From the NCBI RefSeq assembly GCF_900106035.1, contig NZ_FNUC01000003.1, positions 558,001-622,000 of the forward strand: a stretch of DNA of 64,000 nucleotides, written 5' to 3'. The notes under the pieces were generated by a model. The model made no database searches. It saw only the letters and a program-made list of their open reading frames with translations, and had not been told where the DNA came from. The position numbers were made by a program, and so were the translations under genes. Below, piece by piece: positions 28,532 to 42,883 of the stretch (positions are counted from its first letter, which is position 1; each line of letters starts with the position of its first letter). The stretch is from Jiangella alba. Its GTDB lineage: Bacteria; Actinomycetota; Actinomycetes; Jiangellales; Jiangellaceae.

Positions 28532-28968
28532 CCGACCTCCAGGCCGTCGCCGACCGGGTCGAGATCGAGGCGCTGCGCGGCGAGTTCGCCGACGCCGGGA
28601 TGATGCGCGACTACGACCGGTTCGCGGCGCTGTTCACCGACGACGCCGTCTGGCGGGTCCCCGCGGTCGGCGCCGAGTTCGCCGGCCGCGACGCGATCCG
28701 CGCCGGGATCGAGCGGCTGCTCGGCGACCTGTGGGACTACCTGGTGCAGGGCACCCACCCGGGCGTCGTCCGCCTCGACGGCGACACGGCGACCGGCCGC
28801 GCCTACGTGCTGAGCTTCGGCCGGCTCGGCGACGGCGGGTCGCACCTCAACTACTCCGTCTACCACGACCGCTACCGCCGCACCCCCGACGGCTGGCGCT
28901 TCTCCGAGCGCGTCGACGAGGTGCTGTACGTGGACACCAGTCCACTGGCGGGCGGCCCGCCCGGCTGA
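28528..28968 (+). CDS. SnoaL-like (nuclear transport factor 2 fold) protein
   Basis: 146 residues from GTG 28528. The N-terminal IEALRGEFADAGMMRDYDRFAALFTDDAVWR, GRDAIRAGIERLL, and VYHDRYRRTPDGWRFSERVDEVLYV form the cone-shaped NTF2/SnoaL fold. Such proteins are isomerases, dehydratases or binding proteins for small hydrophobic ligands. Its overlap with the SDR gene makes co-translation likely. The same fold is the C-terminal domain of the adjacent ECF41 sigma factor, so it may be a paralog-like partner. Confidence 0.8.
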   Translation: MTDLQAVADRVEIEALRGEFADAGMMRDYDRFAALFTDDAVWRVPAVGAEFAGRDAIRAGIERLLGDLWDYLVQGTHPGVVRLDGDTATGRAYVLSFGRLGDGGSHLNYSVYHDRYRRTPDGWRFSERVDEVLYVDTSPLAGGPPG

Positions 28969-29029
28969 CCCCGCGACGCCCAACTGGGCCGTCCGGTACG
29001 CGTCGGTCATGCGACGTCCGGGGCTCGAC

Positions 29030-29167
29030 TCACGCCTTCGGCGGTCCGAGCGGTCTGTTCCGCTTGCGGTCGGCCGCCAGGATTGCGTCGGTGACGGCCA
29101 GCTTGATGATGAAGTACTGAATCGCGAGGCCGACCACGATCGCGACGAGAACGCCGCCGTCGTCCAT
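29030..29167 (-). CDS. 45-residue membrane protein, unknown
   Basis: ATG 29167 follows AAGGAG by 8 bases, a strong ribosome site. One TM segment (VLVAIVVGLAIQYFIIKLAV) and a basic tail RKRNRPLGPPKA. I do not recognise the family. Confidence 0.5.
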   Translation of the reverse strand: MDDGGVLVAIVVGLAIQYFIIKLAVTDAILAADRKRNRPLGPPKA

Positions 29168-29321
29168 GAGCACGCTCCTTGAGGTCGAGGCGGGCGTCGG
29201 CGCACCAGCCGGGCGCGTCATGCTCGCACGGCCTCCGGACACTTCGGCGCCGACGAGCTGACCTCGACGTCGGTCAGCCGGGTGCCGATACTGGCAGCGG
29301 CGTGAGGACCCCGGAACGCCG

Positions 29322-29352
29322 AACGCCCGGTCTCGATCGAGAACCGGGCGTT
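29322..29352. terminator. Strong hairpin beside the tRNA-Lys fragment
   Basis: AACGCCCGGT and ACCGGGCGTT (10 bp) flank the palindrome CTCGATCGAG, so the whole can fold as one long stem. A short TTT follows. It looks like a bidirectional terminator. Confidence 0.55.
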
Positions 29353-29367
29353 TGCGCTGATGAGAGA

Positions 29368-29404
29368 TGGTGCGCCATCAGGGCTCGAGCCCTGAACCCG
29401 CTGA
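29368..29404 (-). repeat. tRNA-Lys 3'-end fragment with CCA (candidate attachment site)
   Basis: 34 bases (29371-29404) match 32 of 35 bases of the 3' end of the tRNA-Lys gene at 42811-42845, in the same orientation, with one deleted base and two substitutions. It also encodes CCA immediately after the discriminator, unlike the intact gene. The upstream half of a tRNA is missing. The arrangement is what an integrated element leaves at its far border. Confidence 0.75.
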
Positions 29405-29647
29405 ATGGCAGCCTATCCAGCTCTCGAGGCTTTGGCCTGCGGCGATGCGCTTCTGGCCGACTCGAAGGCTGACCGTGGCGTGGACGCGTCCCCGTGCCGA
29501 GACGCAGACGGGGGTGCCATGCCACGGGACCTCGATCGCGCCGTCGCTCCACGGTTGCCCCGCCGAAGGCCAGACCCACGGGAGAGTGGAGGGGACGCCT
29601 GGCATCGCGGCGCGTCGACGCCGGGCCCGGGGGCACTACGGGTGACG

Positions 29648-30136
29648 TCAGCGGCCGCCGAACGTCTCCAGCAGAATCGCGCGCTCGGCCTCGGTGAGGT
29701 TGGTGCTGATCAGGGTGGCGTCCCGGCCATGGAATCGCTCGCCCAGCCGGTCGACGTCCGCGTCGTCGGTGACCATGAACAGCGCCGAGGTGCCGGGACC
29801 GACCTCGGTGCGGATGCGTTCGAGGTCACCCTGGGTGATCCCGGTCCCCTCGGTGGCCTTCGCGAGCGCGCCGATGCCGGCTCCGATGATGGCTCCGGCG
29901 ACGGGGATCATGAAGAGAGCGCCGCCGAGGATTCCCCAGAGCGCGCCCCAGCCGGCACCCCGCTTCGTGCTGTCGTGCGTGTGCTCGAGCCTTGGCTTCT
30001 CCTCACCTTGCCGCCAGCTCAGCACCGCGTGGTCGACGATCTTCACGACCCCGTCGGACTCGGCGGCCTTCAGCGCCGCTGCGGCCCGGGCCGCGCCGTC
30101 CGGGTCCTCGAACTTCCAGACCGTGAACGTGGTCAT
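29648..30136 (-). CDS. DUF1269 family membrane protein
   Basis: 162 residues. TTFTVWKFEDPDGAARAAAAL begins an alpha/beta domain with a central Gly/Ala hydrophobic segment (WGALWGILGGALFMIPVAGAIIGAGIGALA) and a C-terminal FGGR. This is the DUF1269 pattern, where the central segment is a membrane hairpin and the ends are cytoplasmic. Function unknown, possibly stress-related. It is on the minus strand, 69 bases downstream of a SpoIIAA-like gene. Confidence 0.82.
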   Translation of the reverse strand: MTTFTVWKFEDPDGAARAAAALKAAESDGVVKIVDHAVLSWRQGEEKPRLEHTHDSTKRGAGWGALWGILGGALFMIPVAGAIIGAGIGALAKATEGTGITQGDLERIRTEVGPGTSALFMVTDDADVDRLGERFHGRDATLISTNLTEAERAILLETFGGR

Positions 30137-30205
30137 GGTCTCCTCCTCTGGAACCAGCTGTGACGTCGGCCGTGTCGATCGGTCCAGGTCAGCCGAGGTG
30201 GGCGG

Positions 30206-30577
30206 TCAGTCGTCGTCCTCGTCCTCGACCAACCACTGCTTCGCCTCGAGGATCTCGTCGGGTTCGAAGACCTTGATGTCGCCGGGCATCATCCATCCGA
30301 ACGCCTTGATGCTGTTCTCCAGCCAGTCGGCGTCGGAGACGACCGCGACCTTCCTCCAGCCCTTGAGATGCCGCGCCCACAGCTTGGTATCGGCCCACAT
30401 CGCTCCGGCCGAGTAGGAGAAGCCGCTGTCCAGCACGTACAGCAGACGCACGTCCTTGCGCTCGAGCGCGCTGCTGAGCGCCGGGACGAGCACGTCGCGG
30501 TAGTCCTCCTCGGTGACCTCCCCGGCCGCCTGGACGCCGATGGTTCCCGGTGGCATGTCATCCATCACCCTGATCAC
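30206..30577 (-). CDS. SpoIIAA-like (STAS) family protein
   Basis: 123 residues from GTG 30577, preceded by GAGGAG at 6 bases. GTIGVQAAGEVTEEDYRDVLVPAL, RLLYVLDSGFSYSAGAMWAD and KVAVVSDADWLENSIKAFGWMMPGDIKVFEPDE match the SpoIIAA-like (SpoIIAA_like) STAS-fold proteins, which lack the phospho-Ser site of true anti-sigma antagonists. It likely binds lipids or acts in stress response. It is paired with the DUF1269 gene inside the island and lies next to the LacI gene (divergent). Confidence 0.75.
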   Translation of the reverse strand: MIRVMDDMPPGTIGVQAAGEVTEEDYRDVLVPALSSALERKDVRLLYVLDSGFSYSAGAMWADTKLWARHLKGWRKVAVVSDADWLENSIKAFGWMMPGDIKVFEPDEILEAKQWLVEDEDDD

Positions 30578-30683
30578 GGCATTCTCCTCGGAACGCGTTA
30601 CTCGACGCTCGGGACTGCCAGCCCAACTCGCGCGGTGCACCCGAATGTCTCGACATCGAAGCACCGGCCACGGTCGTGAGGAA

Positions 30684-30700
30684 TCACCCGGTTCGGGTGA
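30684..30700. promoter_or_regulatory. Inverted repeat upstream of the LacI gene
   Basis: TCACCCG-GTT-CGGGTGA, 7-bp perfect arms, 49 bases before the lacI-type start and about 107 bases from the SpoIIAA-like start. It could be an operator for either gene; its sequence differs from the TGACGYGACGAT elements downstream of the regulator. Confidence 0.4.
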
Positions 30701-30748
30701 ATGCGTTGGGCGAGGTTATGCGCCCGGACGTGACGTTGCGTCGATACC

Positions 30749-31777
30749 ATGACGCGCATGGGTACCCAGAAGGAGATCGCACGCCGCGCCGGGGTCTCGG
30801 TCTCCGTCGTGTCCGCCGTCATCAACGGCACCACGCACACGCGGATGAGCGACGAGACGCGTGCTCGCGTCGAGGCCGTCATCGAGGACCTGGGGTACGT
30901 CCCGAACGACGCCGCACGGGCCCTGCGCCGGCAACGCTCGGGGACGATCGCCGTCGTCGTCGAGAAGATCGAGAACCCGATCTACCGCGACATGTTCCAC
31001 GGCATCTACGACGCCGCGGAGGCGCGCGGGTGGGCGGTCGTGCTGGGCGACGCGCGCTGGATGCGCTCCGGCAGCCACTTCCTCGCGCGCCTGCTGGGGC
31101 AGGGTTCGATCGACGGCATCATCCTGCGGAGCGAGGGCCTCATCGACGACGAGGTGCTCGCCCACCTGCGCGCCCGCCCCGCCCCGGTGATCGTCGTCGA
31201 GGGGCGTCACGCACCGGACGGCCGCTGGCTGGCGATCGACGACGCCGCGGCCGGCCGCGTGGCAACACGGCACCTGCTCGACCTCGGCCACCTGGACATC
31301 GAGTTCGTGGGCGGCGAGCAGTGGGTGCCGACGCTGGAACGGCACCGGGGCTACGCCGGCGCGATGCTCGACGCCGGCCTCGAGGCGCGCGATGCGATCC
31401 TGACCGGCCACGGATCCCCGGAAGGCGCAGCGGCCCTCCGGGAGGTCATCGGCTCCGGCCGCCGGCCGACGGCGCTCGTGGCCAACAACGTGCTCGCGGG
31501 CATCGGCATCTGCGCGGCGGCTCACGACGCCGGCATCTCCATTCCGGGCGACCTCTCCGTGATCGCGATCCACGACGCGGACGTCGCCGGTGACGTCCGC
31601 CCCGCGCTCGCGACCGTGCGCATGCCGATGGCCGAGCTCGGGGCACGCGCCGTCGACGCGATCGCGGCGATCCTGGAGGACGCACCGACGCGGTTCGGCC
31701 TCGTCGACGAGCCCGCACCCGTGCTGATCCCGCGCGCCAGCACGGCGCCGCCTCCGGGGTCGCCTCGCCTCCGGTGA
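30749..31777 (+). CDS. LacI family transcriptional regulator
   Basis: 342 residues. N-terminal HTH: TQKEIARRAGVSVSVVSAVINGTT, followed by the hinge helix region (YVPNDAARALRRQRS) and a periplasmic-binding-type domain ending in LIPRAST. It is the likely sugar-responsive repressor of the following operon, since the operator copies lie between its stop (31777) and the first operon gene (31926). The start could be the ATG 9 bases further in (MGTQKE). Ligand unknown. Confidence 0.9.
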   Translation: MTRMGTQKEIARRAGVSVSVVSAVINGTTHTRMSDETRARVEAVIEDLGYVPNDAARALRRQRSGTIAVVVEKIENPIYRDMFHGIYDAAEARGWAVVLGDARWMRSGSHFLARLLGQGSIDGIILRSEGLIDDEVLAHLRARPAPVIVVEGRHAPDGRWLAIDDAAAGRVATRHLLDLGHLDIEFVGGEQWVPTLERHRGYAGAMLDAGLEARDAILTGHGSPEGAAALREVIGSGRRPTALVANNVLAGIGICAAAHDAGISIPGDLSVIAIHDADVAGDVRPALATVRMPMAELGARAVDAIAAILEDAPTRFGLVDEPAPVLIPRASTAPPPGSPRLR

Positions 31778-31788
31778 GACGGAGACGC

Positions 31789-31864
31789 ATCGTCGCGTCA
31801 CGAAGTGGATGAAAGCGTTGACGTGACGATGTGTCGTCGGCTACGTTGACGCGACGATACGTCA
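31789..31864. promoter_or_regulatory. Three-copy operator array of the polysaccharide operon
   Basis: TGACGYGACGAT occurs at 31819-31830 and 31847-31858, and inverted (ATCGTCGCGTCA) at 31789-31800. The right-hand copy extends to TGACG-N8-CGTCA (31847-31864), a two-fold symmetrical site. TTGACG (31818-31823) and TACGTT (31842-31847), 18 bases apart, look like a promoter that the middle and right copies would cover. The LacI protein next door is the expected ligand. Confidence 0.6.
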
Positions 31865-31925
31865 GCGTCTTCCGTCAAGGGGCGACGCCGGACTGCACAC
31901 GGACGCCGCACTCGGAAGGACACTG

Positions 31926-33242
31926 TTGACCTCCACCACCGCCACGCCCCGCTCCGTGCTCCTGCGCTCGTCGTGGGCGAACGTGAACATCGGCGACGTC
32001 GCACACTCGCCCGGCCTCGTCACCGCCCTGCTCGACGCCGAGCCCGATGCCCGCATCACGCTGTGGCCGATGCGCCTCGGCGAGCGCGAGGAGGCGATGA
32101 TCCGCCGGGCGATCCCGACGGTCACGATCGTGCGGGGCGACCTCGACGAGGCCGGGGTGCCGACGACGCCGGAGCTCGCCGCGGCGTGGGACGGCGCGGA
32201 CGTCTTCGTGAACGGCTCGGCGGCGAGCGCCTCGCTCGTGCCGGAGCTGGCAGCCTGGCGTGAGCGGTCCGACCGCCCGTACGGGTACGGCGGCGTGACG
32301 GTCGACCCGCTCTGCCCGCCCGCCTGGGGCTCGCTCGAACGGTTGCGGGTCATGACGCAGGACCTGCCGGCGACGTTCCTCGAGGACGACGCCCGCGCGA
32401 TCATCGACGGCGCCGAGTTCCTGTTCGCGCGGGACTCGATCAGCCTCGAGTACCTGCGCTCCCAGGGGGCTCGCCCCGGGGTGCTCGAGTTCGGACCGGA
32501 CGGCACGTTCGCCTATCGCCACCGCGACGACGCCGCGGCTGACGCCTTCCTGGTCGCGCTGGGCCTCACGGCCGGGGAGTTCGGGTGCTTCGTGCCCCGG
32601 CTGCGCTACGCGCCGTACCCGGACATCTACGGAACGGAGCGCACCCGGGAGTTCGACCGCCGGTACGCGATCAACGCCGGCACCGTCGGCCTCGACCTCG
32701 ACACCCTCGCCGCCGCGATCACCACCTGGGTCCGCTCCACGGGCCAGCGGGCCGTCGTCGTGCCCGAGATGAGCTACGCGGTGGAGTTGGCACAGGACGA
32801 GCTGCTGCCACGCGTCCCGGACGACGTCGTCGACCGGGTCACCGTCCTCGACCGGTACTGGCCGCTCGAGGAGGCGCACGCCGTCTACGCCCGCGCCCGC
32901 GCCGTCGTCAGCATGGAGTGCCACTCGCCGATCCTCGCGTCCGTCCATGGCACGCCCGCGCTCTACGTGCGTCAGCCCACCGACACCGTCAAGGGTGAGA
33001 TGTACGCCGACCTCGGAGGCGCGGACGTCGTCGTCGAGATCGAGCCGGACGGCCCGGAGGGCGCGGCCGCTGCCGTCGAAGCGCTCCTCGAGGACGAGGC
33101 GGCGTCCCGGGCGACGTCGTCGGCCATGAACGCCGCGGCCGTCGGCCGCCTGCGCGACGTCGCCCGCACCATCCTGTTCGGCGAGGCCGCATCCGAGTTC
33201 ACCCGCGGGGACCGGGAGGCAGACCTTGTCTCAACTCGCTGA
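31926..33242 (+). CDS. Polysaccharide pyruvyl transferase family protein
   Basis: 438 residues from TTG 31926, with GGAAGGA 7 bases before it. VLLRSSWANVNIGDVAHSPGLVTALL opens the GT-B-like fold of the polysaccharide pyruvyl transferase family, and RTREFDRRYAINAGTVG and SMECHSPILASVHGTPAL are its later blocks. Known members add pyruvate ketals to polysaccharides, using phosphoenolpyruvate. It is the first gene of a catabolic operon, which is odd for an assembly enzyme, so it may act on a sugar intermediate or in another way. It overlaps the next gene by 17 bases. Confidence 0.75.
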   Translation: MTSTTATPRSVLLRSSWANVNIGDVAHSPGLVTALLDAEPDARITLWPMRLGEREEAMIRRAIPTVTIVRGDLDEAGVPTTPELAAAWDGADVFVNGSAASASLVPELAAWRERSDRPYGYGGVTVDPLCPPAWGSLERLRVMTQDLPATFLEDDARAIIDGAEFLFARDSISLEYLRSQGARPGVLEFGPDGTFAYRHRDDAAADAFLVALGLTAGEFGCFVPRLRYAPYPDIYGTERTREFDRRYAINAGTVGLDLDTLAAAITTWVRSTGQRAVVVPEMSYAVELAQDELLPRVPDDVVDRVTVLDRYWPLEEAHAVYARARAVVSMECHSPILASVHGTPALYVRQPTDTVKGEMYADLGGADVVVEIEPDGPEGAAAAVEALLEDEAASRATSSAMNAAAVGRLRDVARTILFGEAASEFTRGDREADLVSTR

Positions 33243-34221
33243 ACGGCCGCCGCAGAAGTCCGCGCGGAAGGGCTCGCCGCCGACGGCGACCACCCGCCGG
33301 CCGCGACGCTCCGGCCAGACCCTCGCCCGCTGGCGGCGCGACCGGCTCCTGCTGCTGCTGGCCACCCCGGGCGTGCTGGTCGTGCTGTTGTTCCACTACG
33401 TCCCCTTGCTGGGCAACGTGATCGCGTTCAAGGGGTATCTGCCGTTCCTGACGATCGGGGAGAGCCCCTGGGTCGGCTGGGACAACTTCCAGGTGATCTT
33501 CTCGGGTGACCCGCTGTTCGTGAACGCGTTGACGAACACGTTGATCATCACGCTGATCCAGGTCGTGCTCGTGTTCCCGCTGCCGCTCGCGCTCGCCCTT
33601 CTCCTCAACGAGGTCATCTCGGAGCGGCTCAAGCGGATCGTGCAGTCGGTCCTCTACATGCCGCACTTCCTGTCCTGGGTGATCGTGGTCGCGCTGTTCC
33701 AGCAGATCCTGGGGAACGCGGGCATGGTGAACACGCTCCTGCGAGAGCGCGACATGTCGACGTTCTCCATCATCGGCGTGCCGGAGCTGTTCGAGGTCCT
33801 CATCACCAGCCAGGTGATCTGGAAGGACACCGGGTGGGGAACGATCATCTTCCTGGCTGCCATCTCGCGGGTCGACACCTCGATGTACGAGGCGGCCGCG
33901 ATGGACGGCGCCGGCGCGATGCGGCGCATGTGGCACGTCACGCTGCCGGCGATCCGGTCGGTGTTCGTCCTGCTGCTGATCCTGCGGCTCGGGGACGCCC
34001 TCACGGTCGGCTTCGAGCAGATCATCCTGCAGCAGGGCGCGGTCGGCGCGACGGCGAGTGAGGTCCTCGACACCTACGTCTACAACCACGGAATCGTCGG
34101 CGGCAACTGGGGCCAGGCCGCTGCCGTCGGCCTCACGAAGGGTGTCATCTCAGTGCTCTTGGTGCTGGGTGCGAACAAGCTCGCACACAAGTTCGGTGAG
34201 CGGGGGGTGTACCACAAGTGA
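33226..34221 (+). CDS. ABC sugar permease, LplB type
   Basis: 331 residues from TTG 33226, GGGAGG upstream. Six membrane segments (e.g. RLLLLLATPGVLVVLLFHYVPLLG near residue 40). The EAA motif is YEAAAMDGAGAMRRMWHVTLPAI, which docks with the ATPase. LplB-type permeases, including AlgM1 of alginate importers, take up complex or acidic oligosaccharides. No ATPase gene is in the operon; a shared MsmK/UgpC-type ATPase is the usual partner. Confidence 0.92.
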   Translation: MSQLAERPPQKSARKGSPPTATTRRPRRSGQTLARWRRDRLLLLLATPGVLVVLLFHYVPLLGNVIAFKGYLPFLTIGESPWVGWDNFQVIFSGDPLFVNALTNTLIITLIQVVLVFPLPLALALLLNEVISERLKRIVQSVLYMPHFLSWVIVVALFQQILGNAGMVNTLLRERDMSTFSIIGVPELFEVLITSQVIWKDTGWGTIIFLAAISRVDTSMYEAAAMDGAGAMRRMWHVTLPAIRSVFVLLLILRLGDALTVGFEQIILQQGAVGATASEVLDTYVYNHGIVGGNWGQAAAVGLTKGVISVLLVLGANKLAHKFGERGVYHK

Positions 34222-35168
34222 CCACGACCTCTCCCCTGGGGCTCACGACCAAGCCACGCAAGGCGCGGCCGTCGGCGTCCGCCGGGCGCCCGGTCTGGAT
34301 GGGGCCGCCGAACCGGGTGCTGACAGCCTTGCGCGGCCTCATCCTGACGATCGGTTGTGCCGTCGTCATCCTCCCTTTCCTCGCCGTCATCTCGACCTCG
34401 CTCGCCACGCAGGAGGAGGTGACCGGGAACGGCGGCTTCGTGCTGCTCGTCCGTGAACCGACCCTCGCCTCCTACCAGGCGGTCCTGTCCGGCGGCGTGG
34501 TGACCCGCGCACTGGTCATCAGCATCGTCGTGACCGTCGCCGGCACGCTGCTGTCGTTGGCATGCACGATCGGGCTCGCGTACGCGCTGTCCCGGCCCGG
34601 ATCGCTCGGCTCGCGCCCGATCCTGCTGGCCGTGCTCTTCACGATGCTGTTCAGCCCCGGCATGATCCCGATGTATCTCGTGGTCAAGCAGCTCGGCCTG
34701 CTCGACAACCTGCTGGCGCTGATCCTTCCCGTGCTCATCAATGCCTTCAACGTCATCGTCATGCGGGAGTTCTTTCTCGACATCCCGGGCGAGCTCATGG
34801 AGAGCGCCCGCATCGACGGCGCGAACGACCTCACGATCCTCGCGCGCATCGTGTTGCCGTTGTCCAAGGCCGTGATCTCCGTCATCGGGCTGTTCTACGC
34901 CGTCGGCTACTGGAACGCGTTCTTCAACGCCCTGCTGTACATCAGCTCGCCCGAGAAGTGGCCCCTGCAACTGGTCCTGCGGACCTACGTCGTCAACGAG
35001 ACCCCGATGGGCGTCGATCAGGTCTCCGCCGGCTCCGACAGCCTGCCCCCGCAGCTGTCCATCCAGATGGCGATCCTCGTCATCTCGATCGTCCCCATCC
35101 TCCTCGTCTACCCGTTCCTCCAGAAGCACTTCACCAAGGGACTCATGATCGGCGCCGTCAAGGGCTGA
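34218..35168 (+). CDS. ABC sugar permease, YtcP/LplC type
   Basis: 316 residues from GTG 34218, overlapping the previous stop by 4 bases. Six membrane segments; EAA motif LMESARIDGANDLTILARIVLPLS. It is the second permease subunit of the importer. Sequence such as PILLAVLFTMLFSPGMIPMYLV is typical of the YtcP/LplC group. Confidence 0.92.
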   Translation: MTTTSPLGLTTKPRKARPSASAGRPVWMGPPNRVLTALRGLILTIGCAVVILPFLAVISTSLATQEEVTGNGGFVLLVREPTLASYQAVLSGGVVTRALVISIVVTVAGTLLSLACTIGLAYALSRPGSLGSRPILLAVLFTMLFSPGMIPMYLVVKQLGLLDNLLALILPVLINAFNVIVMREFFLDIPGELMESARIDGANDLTILARIVLPLSKAVISVIGLFYAVGYWNAFFNALLYISSPEKWPLQLVLRTYVVNETPMGVDQVSAGSDSLPPQLSIQMAILVISIVPILLVYPFLQKHFTKGLMIGAVKG

Positions 35169-35212
35169 CCACCTGTTCTTCATCCTGTCCTCGATGTAGC
35201 GGAAGGAATCCC

Positions 35213-36853
35213 ATGTCCGGCACCATCTCTCGTCGTAGGTTCCTGGGCGCCACCGGCGCTGTCGCGGCGATGGGCCTGTTGGGGGCCTGCTCAGGCTCGC
35301 CGAGTAGTCAGTCGCCGAATGGAGGATCCACCGGTGGCGGTGGTGCCGCCGACGGACTGCTGCCGACGTACAAGCCATTCGACAAGTTCCCGCCCGACCT
35401 CGCCTCGAGCAACCCGGACGTGTCGCCCGGCTACTTCTCCTACCCGGATCCGCCCACGGCGGTGACCAGCGGGGTTCCGGCATCCGGTGATCCGATTCGG
35501 GCGCTGACCTTCACCTATGATCCGGTCGCTCCCGAGCTGGCCAACAACGCGCTGTGGCAGAGCCTCAACGAGGCGCTCGGCACCGAACTGGACCTGGAGT
35601 ACACGCCCGCGGCGGAGTACAACGCCCGGTTCGCGACCACGATCGCCGGCAACGACCTGCCCGACCTCATGGCGATCAAGGGTCAGCAGCAGCAGATGCC
35701 GGCCATGCTGGCCGCGAAGTTCACCGACCTCACCGAGCACCTCTCCGGTGACGCCGTCCTGGATTACCCGAACCTCGCGGCGCTCCCGACGCCGGCCTGG
35801 CTGAGCACCGTCTACGACGGCAAGCTCTGGGGCGTCCCGGTGCCGCGCTCGCTGATCGGCAACGTGCTGTACACACGTGCGGACCTCCTCGAGCGGGCGG
35901 GCCTGTCCTTGCAGCCGGAGTCGCTCGAGGAGTTCACCGAGATGGCGCAGGCCCTCACCAACGATCGGGAGGGTCGCTGGGCCTTCGGGCAGACGCCGCT
36001 GTCGGTGCTGCTCGAGACGAACGGCATCGCGAATCTCTGGTCGGTCGACGGCGCCGGCGCCTTCACCTTCAACGCCACGCTGCCGGGATACGAGCAGGCC
36101 CTGGCCGATTCGGTCGCCCTCAACGACCTGGGGGTCGTGCACCCGGACGGCAACGCCGTTCAGAACACCCAGCGCAACGAATGGATGATCGCGGGCACGA
36201 CCGCGTTCCAGATCGGTCTCTACGCAGGATGGCCCAAGTTCTACGTGCAGGGCGCCGACATCGAGGGCTTCCGCCTGACGGGCATGCTCTCTCCCGCGCG
36301 CGAGGCCGGCGGGGAGATGGTGCGCACCGCCGGCCCCTCGGTCTCGCACTTCTCGGCGGTCGCCAAGCAGGACGACCCGGAGCGTCTCGCCGAGATACTT
36401 CGGGTGCTCGACTGGCTGGCCGCGCCGTTCGGCAGCACGGAGTACATCACCCGCCGGTTCGGCCTGGAGAGCGAGACCTTCACCTTCGAGGGTCCGGATC
36501 CGGTGCTCACCTCACAGGGCGTCAACCAGGCGACGCTGCCGGTGCGGTACATCACGGAGAACTCCCCGGTCATCTTCGAGTCGCGCAACGAGCAAGCCGT
36601 CCGGGATCAGTTCGACCACCAAGAGGCGGGTCTGCAGTACACCGTGCCCAACCCGACGGAGGGGCTCTACTCCGAGACCGCCGTCAGCGAGGGGGCCAGC
36701 GCGCAGCAGGCGCTGACCGCGACCGAGCTCGAGATCGTCCTGGGAAACCGGCCGGTTGCCGATTGGGCCGCCGCGGTCGAGAGCTACATGTCCGCCGTCG
36801 GCAACAAGATCAAGGCCGAGTACGAGGAGGCGTGGGCTCAGCTCAACGGCTGA
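35213..36853 (+). CDS. Extracellular solute-binding lipoprotein (Tat), LplA type
   Basis: 546 residues, GGAAGGA upstream. The signal combines a twin-arginine motif (SRRRFLGA) with a lipobox (LLGAC, Cys at about residue 27), so it is a Tat-exported lipoprotein. The mature part is an LplA-type family 1 binding protein with a Gly/Ser-rich linker (NGGSTGGGG). It captures oligosaccharides for the two permeases. LplA-type proteins bind large saccharides such as oligo-alginate or lipo-oligosaccharides, which suits the downstream lyases. Confidence 0.92.
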   Translation: MSGTISRRRFLGATGAVAAMGLLGACSGSPSSQSPNGGSTGGGGAADGLLPTYKPFDKFPPDLASSNPDVSPGYFSYPDPPTAVTSGVPASGDPIRALTFTYDPVAPELANNALWQSLNEALGTELDLEYTPAAEYNARFATTIAGNDLPDLMAIKGQQQQMPAMLAAKFTDLTEHLSGDAVLDYPNLAALPTPAWLSTVYDGKLWGVPVPRSLIGNVLYTRADLLERAGLSLQPESLEEFTEMAQALTNDREGRWAFGQTPLSVLLETNGIANLWSVDGAGAFTFNATLPGYEQALADSVALNDLGVVHPDGNAVQNTQRNEWMIAGTTAFQIGLYAGWPKFYVQGADIEGFRLTGMLSPAREAGGEMVRTAGPSVSHFSAVAKQDDPERLAEILRVLDWLAAPFGSTEYITRRFGLESETFTFEGPDPVLTSQGVNQATLPVRYITENSPVIFESRNEQAVRDQFDHQEAGLQYTVPNPTEGLYSETAVSEGASAQQALTATELEIVLGNRPVADWAAAVESYMSAVGNKIKAEYEEAWAQLNG

Positions 36854-36944
36854 CGCCACGGATGGTACGGCCGCCGGTCGCATGGTCGCGCGGGGTGCTG
36901 CTGAAGCACCGGGTTGACACCTTCACAGCAAAGGAGTCACGGAG

Positions 36945-39900
36945 ATGCAACGAAGCACTTCCCGGCGGAGCATTCGCCGTCGTGTCCATGCGATCACCGG
37001 CGCGGCCGTCACGCTGGCGGTGGTGGGGACGGGCCTGTTATCGGTGCCGGCCGCTGCGTCCGACATGTCGGATCTCGGCGAGCTGCTCGACCTGACGCGT
37101 CCGGAGCTCGCCGGAGTCGCGGCGGAGCTCGCGGCCGGCGATGAGGCGGGCGCCGCCGACCAGCTCAAGGCCTACTACGCGGGCCGCACGGGGATCGCGT
37201 TCCCGACGCCGGGAGCGGCGGGGGTCGGCGACGCGACCGCCGACGAGCTCGCGGCCGGGATCTTCCGGTTCGGCGCCGAGACCCGCGACTTCTACGACGA
37301 CGCCGAGCAGCGGATCGACGTCGACTGGCAGGACACCTGGGGCGGGACGGAGGCCGCCCCCGGCGGCGCGCAGGTCCTGATGAGCGACCTCGCGTTCATG
37401 CCGACGCTGGCGAGTGCCTACGTCAACGAGAGCGACCCGCAGCGGCGTGCGGCGTATGCGAAGGCGTGGATGGAGATCTCACTGGACTTCTTCGCCGACA
37501 ACCCGAGCTGGCCGCAGGTCCGCAATCTGTCGGCCGGCAAGCGGCTGAACCAGCTCATCAGCGCGTTCTCCGTGTTCCGGACGGAGCCGGCCACCGACGC
37601 GGGCGACCTGGTGACGTACCTGTCCGGCGTGCACGAGACGACCGACTTTCTCACGCAGGTTCTGCAGATTCATGTCGGAAACAACTGGTATGTGTCGATG
37701 GCTCGCTCGATCTACTTCGCGGCGGTGTACCTGCCCGAGTTCAGGGCATCCTCCGGCTGGGAGTCGTTCGCCGTGCGATCCGTCGAGCGGTTCCTGCGCG
37801 CGTACGTGCAGAGCGACGGCGTGTACCGCGAGCCGGCATTCAACTACCAGGCCTACGTGGCGGACCTGATCAACAGCATGACCGGCGTCGCGGACGCCAA
37901 CGGGCGGAAACTACCCGATGCGCTCATCCAGGCGGCGGACTGGATCGCGGACGTGATGTTCGCGACCCGGCAGCCGAATCTCGAGCCCGCGCAGATCGGC
38001 GACACACCGAACATCGATGCGGGCAGGAGCGCCATTCGGGCGACCGGTGAACGCCACTCATGGTCCGATTTCACCTGGGTCGCCTCCGGTCGAACCGCGG
38101 GGACGCCCCCGACACTGGGGTCCACGCTGTATCCGATCAGCTTCGCGGTGCAGCGCTCGGGGTGGGACGCCGATGCGCAGTACCTGCTGATCAACAACCA
38201 CAACTCCAGTTACACCGCCTCGCACCGGCATCCGGACGACCTCAGCCTGGTGATGTCGGCGTACGGACGCCCGCTGATCGTCGACTCCGGAGTGGGCGAC
38301 TACAGCGCCACCCCGACGAACGACTGGATGCGCCGCACGACCGAGGCGCACAACACCGTCGAGGTCGACCGGAAGCCGCAGGCCGCGGGGGTCACCCGCG
38401 CGATGTCGCTCTGGCGGTCGAACGCGGGTCTCGACGTCTACCGCGGCCAGGCGATGGGCTACCAGCCGGTCGCGCACGACCGGGTCGTCTACTTCGTCAA
38501 GCCCGGCTTCTGGGTGGTCTCCGACGACCTCACCGGTGACACCGCCGCGCACGACTACCGGCAGCTCTGGCACTTCCCCGGTGATCCGGTCACCGTCGAC
38601 CCGGCCACGAACGTCGCCACGGTCGGGTTCGACACCGTGCCGGGCGCCACGCCGGTTGCCGGGGTGCAACTCGTTCCCGTGACCCCGGCCGGCGCCGAGG
38701 TCACGCCGAGCGTCCACGAGAACGGCGCCGTGCGCGTGGGCGAGGACGTGCTCACGGACGTCGACTACCTGTCCTACGACTGGTCCGCCACCGGCGCCAC
38801 GGGACTGGACACCATCGTGTTTCCCGGCAGCGCCGGCCGGGCGCCCTCGGTGACGGCCACCCGCATCGAGCTGCCTGGGGTGGATCACTCCGTGGCGACC
38901 GCGATGGAGATCGACCTGCCGCACTCGACCGGCCGCTTCTACCTCTCGCGCGAGGCGACGCCCTCGTCGAGGGAGTTCGGGAACGCCGCGACCGACGCCG
39001 AAACCGCGTATCTCGAACGTGCCGGGCACGACAGGCTCACGCGGTACGCGCTGACACGAGGGTCGTCGCTGGTCGACGGCGGTGACACCGTCCTCGACGC
39101 GTCCGCAGTGGTGTCCGACGTCAGTGTGGAGCTGCGGGGCGCGACCGCCCGGATCTCGCTCGGCGACCCGTTCACCGGCACCCTCACGATCAACGCGCCG
39201 ACGGCGAGAGTGGTGAAGGTGAACGACACCCCGACCGCGTTCACGCGTACCGGTGACCTCGTCACCGTGACGGTCGAGCCGGCCTTCGCGCCGGCGCCGG
39301 TGCTCGACGAGGAGTTCGAGGACGCGAGCCTGGACCGCACCGTCCATGGCTTCGACGGCGGACTCGAGGGCTGGACGCCGGTGCAGGGCTCCTGGGGACT
39401 GGGCGGCGATCCATCGAATGCCAAGCTGGCACAGACCTCGAGCGCGGACATGCAGTCGTTCGCCATGCTGCAGGACGTGCCGGACGACGTGATCGTGTCC
39501 GCGGACATCGTTCCCGGGACCAGCAACCAGGCGACCGCCCGGACCGGCCTGGCGTTCCGCTACCACGATTCGCGCAACTACTACCGGGCCAACGTCCTCA
39601 CGACGTCGACCGGCGCGAAGCTGCAGCTCGTGAAGGTCTACAACGGGACGTCCACGCTCCTCGCGGAGACCGACGTGGCGCTGGACAACGACGCCGAGTA
39701 CACGCTGACCGTCTCCGCGGTCGGGCGTCACCTGGTCGCCACCGTCGGCGACACGTCGATCTCCGCGAACGACGGCCAACTGCCGACCGGCGGGGCCGCG
39801 GCCTACACGCATCGGCGGGCCGCGACCTTCGACGACATCACGATCAGCGAGGCCCTCGATCAGGCGAACTGGCGCGGAATCGGGGGCCAGGCGACCGTCA

Positions 39901-40367
39901 GCTCGGGTCAGCTGACCCTCACGCCGGTCGATGGCCGAGCGCACGTGCTCGCCGAGTCGACACTGCCGGCGCGGTTCTCCCAGCAGTGCGACTATGTCGC
40001 GGAGACCACGGTCACGATCAACGGCGTCGGCACTGCCGGCATCTCGCTGCGCGACACCTCGGACTCCTACGGCTACCGGATCCACATCGGCAGGACGAGC
40101 AGCGGTTCCCGATACGCGAGCATCATCCGCGAGGCCCACCGGTCGGGCCCGGTCACGGTGGCCACGGTCTCGCTCGGCGACCCGCTGAACGGCCCCGTTC
40201 GGCTGGGCGCGGCCGTTCACGGCGACCGCGTCACCGTGACGTTGAACGGCGTGCAGATCCTGGAGGGACGCGACACCGTGGTGCGAAGCGGCGGCGTCGG
40301 GCTCTACGCGACCACGCAGAGCACGTTCGACGATTTCACGGTCGCCCAGTCCTGCGAGGACGGATGA
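36945..40367 (+). CDS. Secreted heparinase II/III-type polysaccharide lyase with C-terminal concanavalin-like modules
   Basis: 1140 residues with a Sec signal peptide ending at about VPAAAS. N-terminal alpha/alpha toroid (residues about 50-400) with NWYVSMARSIYFAAVYLPEF and FNYQAYVADLIN, then the beta-sandwich heparinase II/III domain with NNHNSSYTASHRHPDDLSLVMSAYGRPLIVDSG, which includes the typical catalytic His. Two C-terminal repeats (about 800-1140) of a laminin-G-like/3-keto-disaccharide hydrolase-like fold may bind sugar. Eliminative cleavage of an acidic polysaccharide is likely, and the exact substrate (heparin, alginate, ulvan or another) is not clear. AAGGAG lies 8 bases before the ATG. 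Confidence 0.85.
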   Translation: MQRSTSRRSIRRRVHAITGAAVTLAVVGTGLLSVPAAASDMSDLGELLDLTRPELAGVAAELAAGDEAGAADQLKAYYAGRTGIAFPTPGAAGVGDATADELAAGIFRFGAETRDFYDDAEQRIDVDWQDTWGGTEAAPGGAQVLMSDLAFMPTLASAYVNESDPQRRAAYAKAWMEISLDFFADNPSWPQVRNLSAGKRLNQLISAFSVFRTEPATDAGDLVTYLSGVHETTDFLTQVLQIHVGNNWYVSMARSIYFAAVYLPEFRASSGWESFAVRSVERFLRAYVQSDGVYREPAFNYQAYVADLINSMTGVADANGRKLPDALIQAADWIADVMFATRQPNLEPAQIGDTPNIDAGRSAIRATGERHSWSDFTWVASGRTAGTPPTLGSTLYPISFAVQRSGWDADAQYLLINNHNSSYTASHRHPDDLSLVMSAYGRPLIVDSGVGDYSATPTNDWMRRTTEAHNTVEVDRKPQAAGVTRAMSLWRSNAGLDVYRGQAMGYQPVAHDRVVYFVKPGFWVVSDDLTGDTAAHDYRQLWHFPGDPVTVDPATNVATVGFDTVPGATPVAGVQLVPVTPAGAEVTPSVHENGAVRVGEDVLTDVDYLSYDWSATGATGLDTIVFPGSAGRAPSVTATRIELPGVDHSVATAMEIDLPHSTGRFYLSREATPSSREFGNAATDAETAYLERAGHDRLTRYALTRGSSLVDGGDTVLDASAVVSDVSVELRGATARISLGDPFTGTLTINAPTARVVKVNDTPTAFTRTGDLVTVTVEPAFAPAPVLDEEFEDASLDRTVHGFDGGLEGWTPVQGSWGLGGDPSNAKLAQTSSADMQSFAMLQDVPDDVIVSADIVPGTSNQATARTGLAFRYHDSRNYYRANVLTTSTGAKLQLVKVYNGTSTLLAETDVALDNDAEYTLTVSAVGRHLVATVGDTSISANDGQLPTGGAAAYTHRRAATFDDITISEALDQANWRGIGGQATVSSGQLTLTPVDGRAHVLAESTLPARFSQQCDYVAETTVTINGVGTAGISLRDTSDSYGYRIHIGRTSSGSRYASIIREAHRSGPVTVATVSLGDPLNGPVRLGAAVHGDRVTVTLNGVQILEGRDTVVRSGGVGLYATTQSTFDDFTVAQSCEDG

Positions 40368-42694
40368 CCCCGCGTGACCTGCCCGTGCCGGCGCCGCCCG
40401 CGGACATCGCGGCGCTCATCACGCCGGGCCACCCGCGCCTGATGGTCGACGACGCGGCGCTCGCCGGGATCGCCGAGCGCATCGCGTCCAACGACCTCAC
40501 CGCGCAGCTGTACGACGACCTGATCGCGCAGGCAGACGCGCTGCTCACCATGCCGGCATCCGAGTACGAGTTCCCCGACGGGCGCACGCTGCTCATCGTC
40601 ACCCGCGAGGTCCAGAGCCGCCTCTACGCGCTGGCGATGGCGTACCGGCTCACGCAGGACGAGCGGTACGCGGCGCGTGCGTACGAGGAGATGGCGGCCG
40701 CCGCCGCGTTCCCGGACTGGAATCCGGAGAGCTTCCTGTCCGTCGCGGAACTCATGCACGCGTTCGCGGTGGGCTACGACTGGCTGCACGGGTACCTCGA
40801 CGAGGCGCAGCGCCAGGTCGTGCGCGACGCGATCGTCAGGCTCGGGCTGGAGCCCGCGATCGCACAGCACCGGTCCGGGGCGTCGTGGACCACGAGGACG
40901 AACAACTGGAACGTCGTGTGCAACGGCGGGACGATCATGGCCGCGCTCGCCATCGGCGTCGAGGAGCCGGAGCTCGCGAACGAGGCGATGCACCTCGCGT
41001 TCGACTCGCTGCCCGTGGCGCTCGCGCGGTACGGGCCCGACGGCGGGTACCCCGAGGGCGCCACGTACTGGGGCTACGCCACGCGGTTCCTCGTGCCGGT
41101 CATGGCGTCGCTCGAGACGGCGGTCGGCGACGACTTCGGCATCACGCAGACCGCGGGGCTCGACCGCACGGTCGACTTCGGGATCCACATGACCGGTCCG
41201 GCGGGCCAGCCGTTCAACTACTACGACGCCCCCAGCACCGGCCACCCCGGGAGGACCGCAGCGCACTGGCTCGCCGCGCACTACGGTGAGCCGGCCTACG
41301 CGTGGTGGGCCGAGCAGGGAACCGCGCTTCACTCGCGTCCGCTTCCGCCGCTGCACCTGATGTGGCAGGGGCTGATCGATGCGGTGCCGCCGAACGAGGC
41401 CGGCCTGCCGCTGGACCGCGAGTTCGACGCCATCGCCACCTTCCTCTCGCGCAGCGCGTGGAACAGCACGACCGCGAACTTCTTCGGGTTCAAGGCGGGG
41501 GACAACGCGTCCAGCCACGCCGACCTCGATCTGGGCACGTTCGTGCTCGACGCACTCGGTACACGTTGGGCCGTGGAGCTCGGGCCGGAGACCTACGACC
41601 TGCCCGGGTACTGGTCGGCCGGTCCCGAGGGCCGACGCTGGACCTACTACCGCAAGCGTCCCGAGGGACAGAACACGCTCGTCGTCAACCCCGACGCGAC
41701 GCCCGGTCAGGCCGTCGACGCGAGGGGGACGCTCGTGGCGACCGGCTCGAGCCCGGACGCGAGCTTCGCCGTCGCCGACCTGTCGGAGGCGTACACGGCC
41801 CAAGGCGTGACGAGCTGGCAACGTGGCATGGCGCTGATCGACGGCCGGAGCCGCTTCGTCGTGCAGGACGAAGTCACGGCGTCCTCCCCGGTCGAGGCGT
41901 GGTGGTTCATGCACACGTCCGCCGGCATCGACGTCGCGGCCGACGGCCGGTCCGCCATGCTCACCCTCGACGGCCGGCAGCTGCGCGCCGTCCTGCTCGA
42001 TGCGCCCGACGGCGTCCGGTTCTCGGCCATGGACGCCGTGCCGTTGCCGACGTCGCCGAACCCGGACGGCCAGACGCCGAACGCCGGCGTCCGCAAGCTC
42101 GTCATCACGGGGCCGGAGGCGGCGCGGTTCCGCCTCAGCGTGCTCCTCGAGCCGCTGCCCACGGGCGTGCACGGGCCGGAGCCCGCCGTGACGGACCTCG
42201 CGGACTGGGCGGTGGCGCCCGCCCCCGACGTCGCCCCGGCGGACCCGCGCGTCGACGGCGAGCCGGTGGCCGGCTACTCCGGCACGCCCGCAGCGCGTGG
42301 CGCGGTAGCGATCATCAGCAACAGCGCTGGGCAGGTGCTCATGCACCTGCGTGACGACTTCGCGCACATCGCATGGCCAGGTCATTGGAGCCTGCTCGGA
42401 GGCGGAGCGGACGGCGACGAGACGCCTCACGACGCCATCGTGCGTGAGCTCCAGGAGGAAGCCGGACTCGTCGCATCGGGCCTCACCGAGCTCTTCGACA
42501 CGGTCGATGTCGACGGCTCCGGTCAGGTGATCACGTTCTTCGCCGGCACGTGGGACGGCGACGAAGCACGGTTGCCTCTGGCCGAGGGCCGCGAGCTCCG
42601 ATTCTTCGCCCCCGAGCAGCTGAAAGCGCTGCAGATCCCGCCCTACATCCATGACGGCATCCAACGGTGGCTGGCCACGTCGGACACCGTGTAG
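40364..42694 (+). CDS. Cytoplasmic heparinase-type lyase fused to a Nudix hydrolase
   Basis: 776 residues, ATGA overlap with the secreted lyase. No signal peptide. Residues 1-640 are a heparinase II/III-type lyase: RTNNWNVVCNGG, YPEGATYWGYATRF and HADLDLGTFVLDALGTRW hold the Asn, Tyr and His positions conserved in such enzymes. Residues 643-776 are a complete Nudix domain with the box GX5EX7REUXEEXGU at about 680-702 (GDETPHDAIVRELQEEAGL). The two are joined by a Pro/Ala linker (EPVAGYSGTPAARG). Lyase products are unsaturated uronic acids; the Nudix part would act on a nucleoside-diphosphate-linked or other phosphorylated molecule. The fusion could also be a loss of a stop between two genes. 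Confidence 0.85.
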   Translation: MTPRDLPVPAPPADIAALITPGHPRLMVDDAALAGIAERIASNDLTAQLYDDLIAQADALLTMPASEYEFPDGRTLLIVTREVQSRLYALAMAYRLTQDERYAARAYEEMAAAAAFPDWNPESFLSVAELMHAFAVGYDWLHGYLDEAQRQVVRDAIVRLGLEPAIAQHRSGASWTTRTNNWNVVCNGGTIMAALAIGVEEPELANEAMHLAFDSLPVALARYGPDGGYPEGATYWGYATRFLVPVMASLETAVGDDFGITQTAGLDRTVDFGIHMTGPAGQPFNYYDAPSTGHPGRTAAHWLAAHYGEPAYAWWAEQGTALHSRPLPPLHLMWQGLIDAVPPNEAGLPLDREFDAIATFLSRSAWNSTTANFFGFKAGDNASSHADLDLGTFVLDALGTRWAVELGPETYDLPGYWSAGPEGRRWTYYRKRPEGQNTLVVNPDATPGQAVDARGTLVATGSSPDASFAVADLSEAYTAQGVTSWQRGMALIDGRSRFVVQDEVTASSPVEAWWFMHTSAGIDVAADGRSAMLTLDGRQLRAVLLDAPDGVRFSAMDAVPLPTSPNPDGQTPNAGVRKLVITGPEAARFRLSVLLEPLPTGVHGPEPAVTDLADWAVAPAPDVAPADPRVDGEPVAGYSGTPAARGAVAIISNSAGQVLMHLRDDFAHIAWPGHWSLLGGGADGDETPHDAIVRELQEEAGLVASGLTELFDTVDVDGSGQVITFFAGTWDGDEARLPLAEGRELRFFAPEQLKALQIPPYIHDGIQRWLATSDTV
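42290..42691 (+). other. Nudix domain portion of the lyase fusion
   Basis: Separate marking of the C-terminal domain: AVAIISNSAGQVLMHLRDDF through GIQRWL. The Nudix box is complete with all its Glu residues, so the domain is probably active. Confidence 0.8.
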
Positions 42695-42810
42695 GCGACG
42701 CCGAAGGTCAGGCAGCAGCTCTGGGGTGTTCGTCGCGACATCAGCCGGGCGCGGGGTGACGCCGCCCTGGCATGGACACAGCGCGGCCAAGGACTTGACC
42801 TGCTGGGGAG

Positions 42811-42883
<73 letters not shown>

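What the first reader, a model, noticed from the sequence alone, without database searches (positions are those of the whole stretch)
40364..42694. Heparinase-type lyase fused to a Nudix hydrolase in one frame
The lyase (about 640 residues, with the RTNNWN, YPEGATYWGY and HADLDLGTF landmarks) is followed without a stop by a complete Nudix domain (box residues 680-702, all Glu present). I know of no described lyase-Nudix fusion. The lyase makes unsaturated uronate; a Nudix domain on the same chain could detoxify or process a phosphorylated or NDP-linked intermediate of the same pathway, or clean up a nucleotide coupled to uptake. Seen in sequence: one open frame with a linker and both motif sets. 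Established: the two families. Inferred: the pathway link.
Basis: partly seen in the sequence, partly recalled or inferred. Interest (0 to 1): 0.65.

Follow-up and report, generated by a model that had tools for sequence, protein, structure and literature searches.

The report
One-genome lyase–Nudix fusion gene
In one actinomycete genome a sugar-polymer-cutting enzyme has had its lost tail replaced, in frame, by a whole small Nudix hydrolase; the join is real in the sequence but looks like a recent accident at the edge of a moving gene block, not a shared pathway.

Summary
In detail: 40364-42694 is one open frame (776 aa) with a PL35-like lyase (DUF4962, Hepar_II_III_C) followed by a NUDIX domain with an intact box at 680-702. 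The genome is a Jiangella (inferred). Four congeners carry the lyase (91-94% identical) without Nudix; none of 30 lyase loci from an 84,980-species collection has a relative of this Nudix in its fetched flanks (two tails unseen); no match in 392 other class genomes spans both halves. The join lies at about 42286-42293: lyase homology stops and homology to stand-alone actinobacterial Nudix genes begins, close to their start codon. Related lyases of Pseudactinotalea and Occultella mostly run on for about 590 residues; Jiangella copies are cut short, and G009 still holds frameshifted remains of that region. The operon is a mobile block beside a high-turnover tRNA-Lys site. Best reading: a lineage-specific chimera from recombination or deletion joining a truncated lyase in frame to a Nudix gene that lost its start. 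Both motif sets survive, so both halves may work, but nothing supports a common pathway. One lead: some stand-alone relatives of this Nudix sit between asparagine-synthetase and UDP-glucose-dehydrogenase genes.

The parts
40364..42694 (+). fused gene, 776 aa: PL35-like lyase plus Nudix domain; its ATG overlaps the stop of the upstream lyase gene (ATGA)
   Evidence: one open frame; Pfam; PDB matches 8khv E 8.3e-90, 8khw 1.8e-73, 9o3q 8e-65
40403..42223 (+). lyase fold: toroid and beta-sheet domain; N181, Y235, H385 match the catalytic residues of GAGase II
   Evidence: mapping on passages of PMC12088678; the three residues are invariant in 17 of 17 aligned lyases; mostly confident model to about residue 620, weak at 288-296, 321-324, 383-386 (which holds H385) and 408-428
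42224..42286 (+). stub of the lost C-terminal region of the lyase, now the linker
   Evidence: aligns to the start of the long C-terminal region of Pseudactinotalea (25 residues, 48%, E 0.009)
42286..42293 (.). junction
   Evidence: DNA homology to the lyase of G009 ends at 42286; homology to stand-alone Nudix begins at 42293 (G076) or 42297 (broken copy in G007). The G004 match runs to 42298, by chance letters at its end as read by eye
42287..42694 (+). Nudix domain, complete apart from its natural start codon and up to about ten first residues
42810..42883 (-). tRNA-Lys(ctt); its 3' end faces the fused gene
   Evidence: ARAGORN
29370..29404 (+). repeat (36 columns, 92%) of the 3' end of tRNA-Lys (42810-42845), same orientation: old integration scar or remnant
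28962..42773 (.). stretch absent from the tRNA-Lys locus of G009, where 28961 and 42774 lie side by side (3 nt between)
30749..40367 (+). rest of the operon: LacI regulator 30749, pyruvyl-transferase-like 31926, permeases 33226 and 34218, solute-binding protein (start about 35231, my choice, inside ORF 34562-36853), secreted-looking PL12-like lyase 36945-40367
   Evidence: PL12 label for heparinase III recalled and in PMC12088678 passages

Best explanation
It is a lineage-specific chimeric gene. A mobile uronate-polysaccharide operon (LacI regulator, ABC importer, PL12-like and PL35-like lyases) sits in a high-turnover spot beside tRNA-Lys. Its last gene, the PL35-like lyase, had already been cut short in Jiangella. 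In this genome its 3' end was formed by recombination or deletion that joined codon ~641 of the lyase, in frame (a 1-in-3 chance), to an acquired actinobacterial Nudix gene at or just after its start codon. The product is probably cytoplasmic (no signal peptide evident by eye), with the lyase cutting imported uronate oligosaccharides and the Nudix domain, if folded, keeping its own unrelated pyrophosphohydrolase activity on a short linker. Shown: the frame, both motif sets, the junction, absence from the relatives examined, shortened ends in relatives, turnover at the site. Inferred: the order of events, cytoplasmic location, activity of either half, lack of a functional link.
For: Lyase 91-94% identical in G001, G004, G007, G009, matching only to residue 640-642. 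Their own ends differ: 16 residues past 641 in G009 and G004, about residue 632 in G007 and about 628 (TAA) in G001. 0 of 30 lyase loci in genome contigs with a relative of this Nudix in the fetched flanks. 392 other class genomes: no match spanning both halves. Nudix in 2 of 12 genus genomes: here and as a broken stand-alone copy in G007, whose ATG falls at window residue 641. Stand-alone Nudix relatives in 56 of 72,556 plasmid records. Pseudactinotalea and five of six Occultella loci run on for 587-597 residues after position 638-639, and G009 holds remains of that region in two frames right behind its lyase (47% and 53% identity, E 4e-8). Right edges of the operon between 42234 and 42298 in five genomes, one of them a remnant, and an empty site or remnants at tRNA-Lys. 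Catalytic motifs kept; lyase dN/dS 0.32-0.49 against four congeners, other operon genes 0.14-0.60.
Against: The Nudix domain is intact and in frame and keeps 23 of 23 residues invariant in eleven relatives, which selection for a bifunctional enzyme would also show. Against nine closer relatives it differs at 3 of 47 invariant residues besides the lost start Met (D685 for G, D712 for E, Y761 for F). In 20 of the 30 lyase loci the chain ends less than 100 residues past the last aligned residue, so the long form may be a feature of some genera only and not ancestral to all. The repeat at 29370 and the borders 28961/42774 do not coincide and no integrase was seen among the ORFs scanned, so the mechanism is unknown. 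The donor Nudix at this site was not found. Reads were not available.
Confidence: 0.8

Rival explanations
1. A selected bifunctional enzyme: the Nudix domain processes a sugar nucleotide, phosphorylated or nucleotide by-product of uronate catabolism.
For: Both active-site motif sets are intact; no evident signal peptide, so both halves could meet cytoplasmic substrates; some stand-alone relatives of this Nudix lie beside UDP-glucose dehydrogenase, which makes UDP-glucuronate.
Against: Only one genome has it; 0 of 30 lyase loci and none of four close orthologues do; the join is at a frayed, mobile operon edge. Lyase products are not nucleotide-linked (established knowledge).
Confidence: 0.07
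2. Assembly or sequencing artefact joining two separate genes.
For: The fusion is unique to one assembly; reads were not available.
Against: The contig is 3.3 Mb in a 4-contig assembly; the flanks 28961 and 42774 are the tRNA-Lys neighbourhood seen in G009 and G010; no second copy of the Nudix was found in the genome that could have been mis-joined.
Confidence: 0.07
3. Two separate products: the Nudix is made alone by internal initiation at GTG 42266-42268 or after cleavage of the linker.
For: An in-frame GTG lies 7 codons before the Nudix part.
Against: That GTG lies in lyase-derived DNA also present in G009 and G004, which have no Nudix; no clear ribosome site by eye and no sigma-70-like promoter (a scan that does not cover other promoter types).
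Confidence: 0.06

Closest known systems
PL35 lyases (GAGases II and VII, 8KHV/8KHW; PL35 chondroitinase 9O3Q)
   Same: Sequence over about residues 20-578 (8khv E 8.3e-90), module order DUF4962 then Hepar_II_III (same order for GAGases in PMC11262172, passages), catalytic Asn, Tyr, His.
   Different: Three of four Mn-contact residues of GAGase II are replaced (H403 by D387, D421 by E405, H457 by Q436; D405 kept as D389). Among the 12 actinobacterial rows, D387 is in 12, E405 in 10 and Q436 in 11. The GAGases described have 624-648 residues, too few for such a tail.
Long PL35-like lyases of Pseudactinotalea and Occultella
   Same: 51-72% identical over the lyase part in the six long loci.
   Different: Signal-like N-terminal stretch (by eye in the rows printed) and 587-597 further C-terminal residues where the window has Nudix.
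Stand-alone actinobacterial NUDIX protein, in Streptomyces plasmids beside asparagine-synthetase genes
   Same: Up to 68.8% identity over 96% of the Nudix half; annotated length 438-441 bases, about 145 aa.
   Different: Separate gene with its own start; here the start codon is lost and the domain is a C-terminal tail.

Membership tests
Polysaccharide lyase family 35 (PL35) | sequence relationship to characterised PL35 enzymes over the lyase fold | tested here: met
   phmmer: 8khv E 8.3e-90, 8khw 1.8e-73, 9o3q 8e-65. No CAZy model was available, so formal CAZy assignment is inferred.
Polysaccharide lyase family 35 (PL35) | catalytic Asn / Tyr / His | tested here: met
   N181, Y235, H385 align to N192, Y246, H401 of GAGase II (residues from PMC12088678 passages)
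Polysaccharide lyase family 35 (PL35) | Mn2+ site His403, Asp405, Asp421, His457 of GAGase II | tested here: inconclusive
   only Asp405 kept; the others are Asp, Glu and Gln here, which could still bind a metal
Polysaccharide lyase family 35 (PL35) | beta-elimination on GAGs or alginate | not testable with these tools
   needs an assay
Nudix hydrolase superfamily | NUDIX domain over the curated score, with the box GX5EX7REUXEEXGU (pattern recalled) | tested here: met
   PF00293 56.8 bits, cut-off 21.1; box at 680-702
MutT (8-oxo-dGTP diphosphatase, TIGR00586) | NCBIfam equivalog cut-off | tested here: not met
   44 bits against 97.9 (47.9 for the Nudix half alone)
tRNA-borne genomic island | matching direct repeats at both borders of the inserted stretch | tested here: not met
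   a tRNA-Lys 3'-end repeat exists at 29370, but the borders seen against G009 are 28961 and 42774
tRNA-borne genomic island | integrase gene | tested here: inconclusive
   none among the window ORFs scanned with Pfam in the stretch; not every ORF was scanned

The most novel reading that the evidence does not exclude
A young bifunctional enzyme: the Nudix comes from a family that can live beside UDP-glucose dehydrogenase and may act on a UDP-uronate-type compound; fusing it to a uronate lyase and placing it under the operon's LacI-type control would link polymer breakdown to control of UDP-uronate pools. It would be a natural case of a new enzyme pairing caught soon after birth.
Probability: 0.05. 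Interest if true: 0.65.

Novelty: new variant of a known kind. Interest (0 to 1): 0.28.

Why it matters
As a function it probably matters little. As a case of gene birth it is clear: relatives with the unfused lyase, a long form in related genera, frameshifted remains of that long form in a congener, a broken stand-alone Nudix and an empty chromosomal site are all on hand, so the making of an in-frame two-enzyme chimera at the edge of a mobile polysaccharide operon can be followed closely. It also warns against reading pathway links from a single fused frame.

Tried and rejected
A conserved fusion: rejected. These looked for relatives of this Nudix, not for every kind of Nudix domain, so a fusion with a very different Nudix could have been missed. 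Phage origin of the Nudix: 2 of 50,697 phage records, both under 35% identity, and 3 viral contigs at 32-38%, so no close phage source in those collections. Clean integrase-type island: the repeat at 29370 looked like an attachment site, but the empty site in G009 shows other borders. Pseudogene reading of the lyase: dN/dS is below 1, and changes private to one lineage are 10 silent and 8 replacing in the window, 5/3, 15/3, 5/6 and 8/10 in G009, G004, G001 and G007; the numbers are small. Source of the Nudix beside the genome's own UDP-glucose dehydrogenase: a 55% homologue was found, without Nudix or AsnB match within about 1.5 kb. Structure of the Nudix half: no confidence (621-776 under pLDDT 50), because the alignment held no Nudix relatives; no fold search was run. 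Literature: PL35/GAGase search (27 papers, 20 listed); Nudix with polysaccharide lyase and fusion (6 papers, listing only, on fungi, oomycetes, their plant hosts or a protist); gene fusion with island, tRNA, transfer and Nudix (0); Jiangella with polysaccharide lyase (2, listing only); Nudix with heparinase and domain architecture (0). None of these listings showed such a fusion. Only passages of PMC12088678 and PMC11262172 were read.
Full report
OBSERVATION. The frame 40364-42694 (+) gives 776 residues with no stop. Pfam places DUF4962 at 83-258, Hepar_II_III_C at 378-550 and NUDIX at 645-757, all over their cut-offs. The Nudix box is complete at 680-702. The finding is confirmed at its stated coordinates. 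The ATG overlaps the stop of the gene before it (36945-40367), whose best PDB match is heparinase III.

THE LYASE HALF. Its best PDB matches are the PL35 glycosaminoglycan lyases 8khv and 8khw and the PL35 chondroitinase 9o3q. Mapping to GAGase II gives N181, Y235 and H385 for the catalytic N192, Y246 and H401 (roles from passages of PMC12088678). These three are invariant in 17 of 17 aligned sequences. Three of the four Mn-contact residues differ: D387 is shared by 12 of the 12 actinobacterial rows, E405 by 10 and Q436 by 11, so metal use and substrate need testing. AlphaFold2 gives a mostly confident lyase fold to about residue 620, with weak stretches that include H385. No signal peptide is evident by eye.

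THE NUDIX HALF. It keeps 23 of 23 residues that are invariant in eleven relatives (on the sequences). Of 48 columns invariant in the nine closer ones, it lacks the start Met and differs in three (D685, D712, Y761). It does not meet the MutT equivalog score (44 bits against 97.9). Close relatives are stand-alone genes: 56 of 72,556 plasmid records have a match, 11 of them at 60-80% identity, 45 in Streptomyces. I read the neighbourhoods of 3 of the 56: all 3 have an asparagine-synthetase-type gene just before the Nudix, and 2 of 3 an annotated UDP-glucose/GDP-mannose dehydrogenase just after it. Of nine distinct Nudix places in genomes, most held with only about 1.5 kb of flank, 3 show matches to both neighbours (L008, L067 in part, L068); the broken copy of G007 has neither in about 20 kb.

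IS THE FUSION SHARED? In 99 genomes including the own one, ten matched; only the own genome matched over residues 1-776, while G009, G004, G001 and G007 matched to residue 640-642 at 91-94%. In 393 class genomes including the own, 13 matched and only the own one spans both halves (only two candidates per genome were scored there). Three Nudix-side matches of that call reach back to residues 597-633 (G115, G188, G345), two of them through a stop; none holds the lyase. In genome contigs 31 loci were returned, 30 with lyase and one (L065) with only a broken Nudix. None of the 30 lyase loci has a relative of this Nudix in the fetched flanks (tblastn; HMM). In two of them (L048, L064) the frame runs into the contig end, so the tail was not seen. 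Five other phylum genomes with a DUF4962 match (6 of 396 with the own) have none within about 1.5 kb; three of the five match only the first part of that model. The tool warns that records of the window's own or very near genomes may be left out of genome contigs.

THE JUNCTION. Lyase DNA homology to G009 ends at 42286; Nudix DNA homology begins at 42293 (G076) or 42297 (broken copy in G007). The ATG of the G007 copy falls at window residue 641, and the Streptomyces-type starts lie about ten residues before the window's first Nudix residue (by eye). So the natural start is gone and the domain follows lyase codon ~641. Ten of the 30 lyase loci run on for 454-1014 residues past the last aligned residue, among them Pseudactinotalea (595) and five of six Occultella loci (587-597); the other 20 end within 100 residues or at the contig end. 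Jiangella copies are short: 16 residues past 641 in G009 and G004, ends near residue 632 in G007 and 628 in G001 (read by eye; the figure of 38 for G001 reads past that stop). Krasilnikoviella ends near residue 624. Behind the G009 lyase, two pieces in different frames match the Pseudactinotalea C-terminal region (47% and 53%, E 4e-8), whereas G007 and G001 show no credible remains and G004 and G010 only weak ones. I infer that the Jiangella gene was once longer, lost its tail by frameshift and deletion, and in the window was capped by a Nudix gene.

THE SITE. The operon is found in G009, G004, G001 and G007 with a shared left edge at 30711-30726 and right edges between 42234 and 42298; G010 and G002 keep only remnants of it within about 2 kb of tRNA-Lys. 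In G009 the tRNA-Lys locus is empty: 28961 and 42774 are adjacent apart from 3 nt, and the operon lies on another contig. A small cassette (DUF1269, SpoIIAA-like; 29641-30703) lies left of the operon here and in G001, but between lyase and tRNA-Lys in G007 and G010. A repeat of the tRNA-Lys 3' end at 29370 hints at past integration, but it does not mark the borders seen against G009, so I do not call this a proven island.

SELECTION. dN/dS of the lyase against four congeners is 0.32-0.49; the other operon genes give 0.14-0.60. Private changes in the window lineage (10 silent, 8 replacing) lie within the range of the others. No intact Nudix orthologue was found in the genus, so selection on the fused Nudix since the join cannot be measured.

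VERDICT. A real, in-frame, lineage-specific chimera, most likely accidental.

Noticed in passing
window 30711-42286; L018-L023, L076-L079: The uronate-polysaccharide operon lies in different contexts in several Jiangella genomes with a sharp left edge and frayed right edges, so it behaves as a mobile block, although no transposase or integrase was seen among its ORFs scanned.
   Followed up: partly
window 29370-29404 and 42810-42845; L020: Direct repeat of the tRNA-Lys(ctt) 3' end; G001 has a partial tRNA-Lys copy beside its operon, with an IS-like transposase next to it by eye, and the full tRNA about 23 kb away.
   Followed up: partly
L073, L074, L008, L067, L068: Neighbourhood asparagine synthetase - NUDIX - UDP-glucose dehydrogenase in Streptomyces plasmids and some other actinomycete genomes; function not known to me.
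   Followed up: partly
window 29641-30703: DUF1269 and SpoIIAA-like gene pair whose place relative to the operon is swapped between relatives.
   Followed up: partly
P0001 residues 387, 405, 436: Mn-contact residues of PL35 GAGases are replaced (His by Asp, Asp by Glu, His by Gln) in most of the actinobacterial lyases aligned, suggesting another metal use or specificity.
   Followed up: partly
window 31926-33242: A polysaccharide pyruvyl-transferase-like gene (PF04230) inside an operon that otherwise looks degradative.
   Followed up: no
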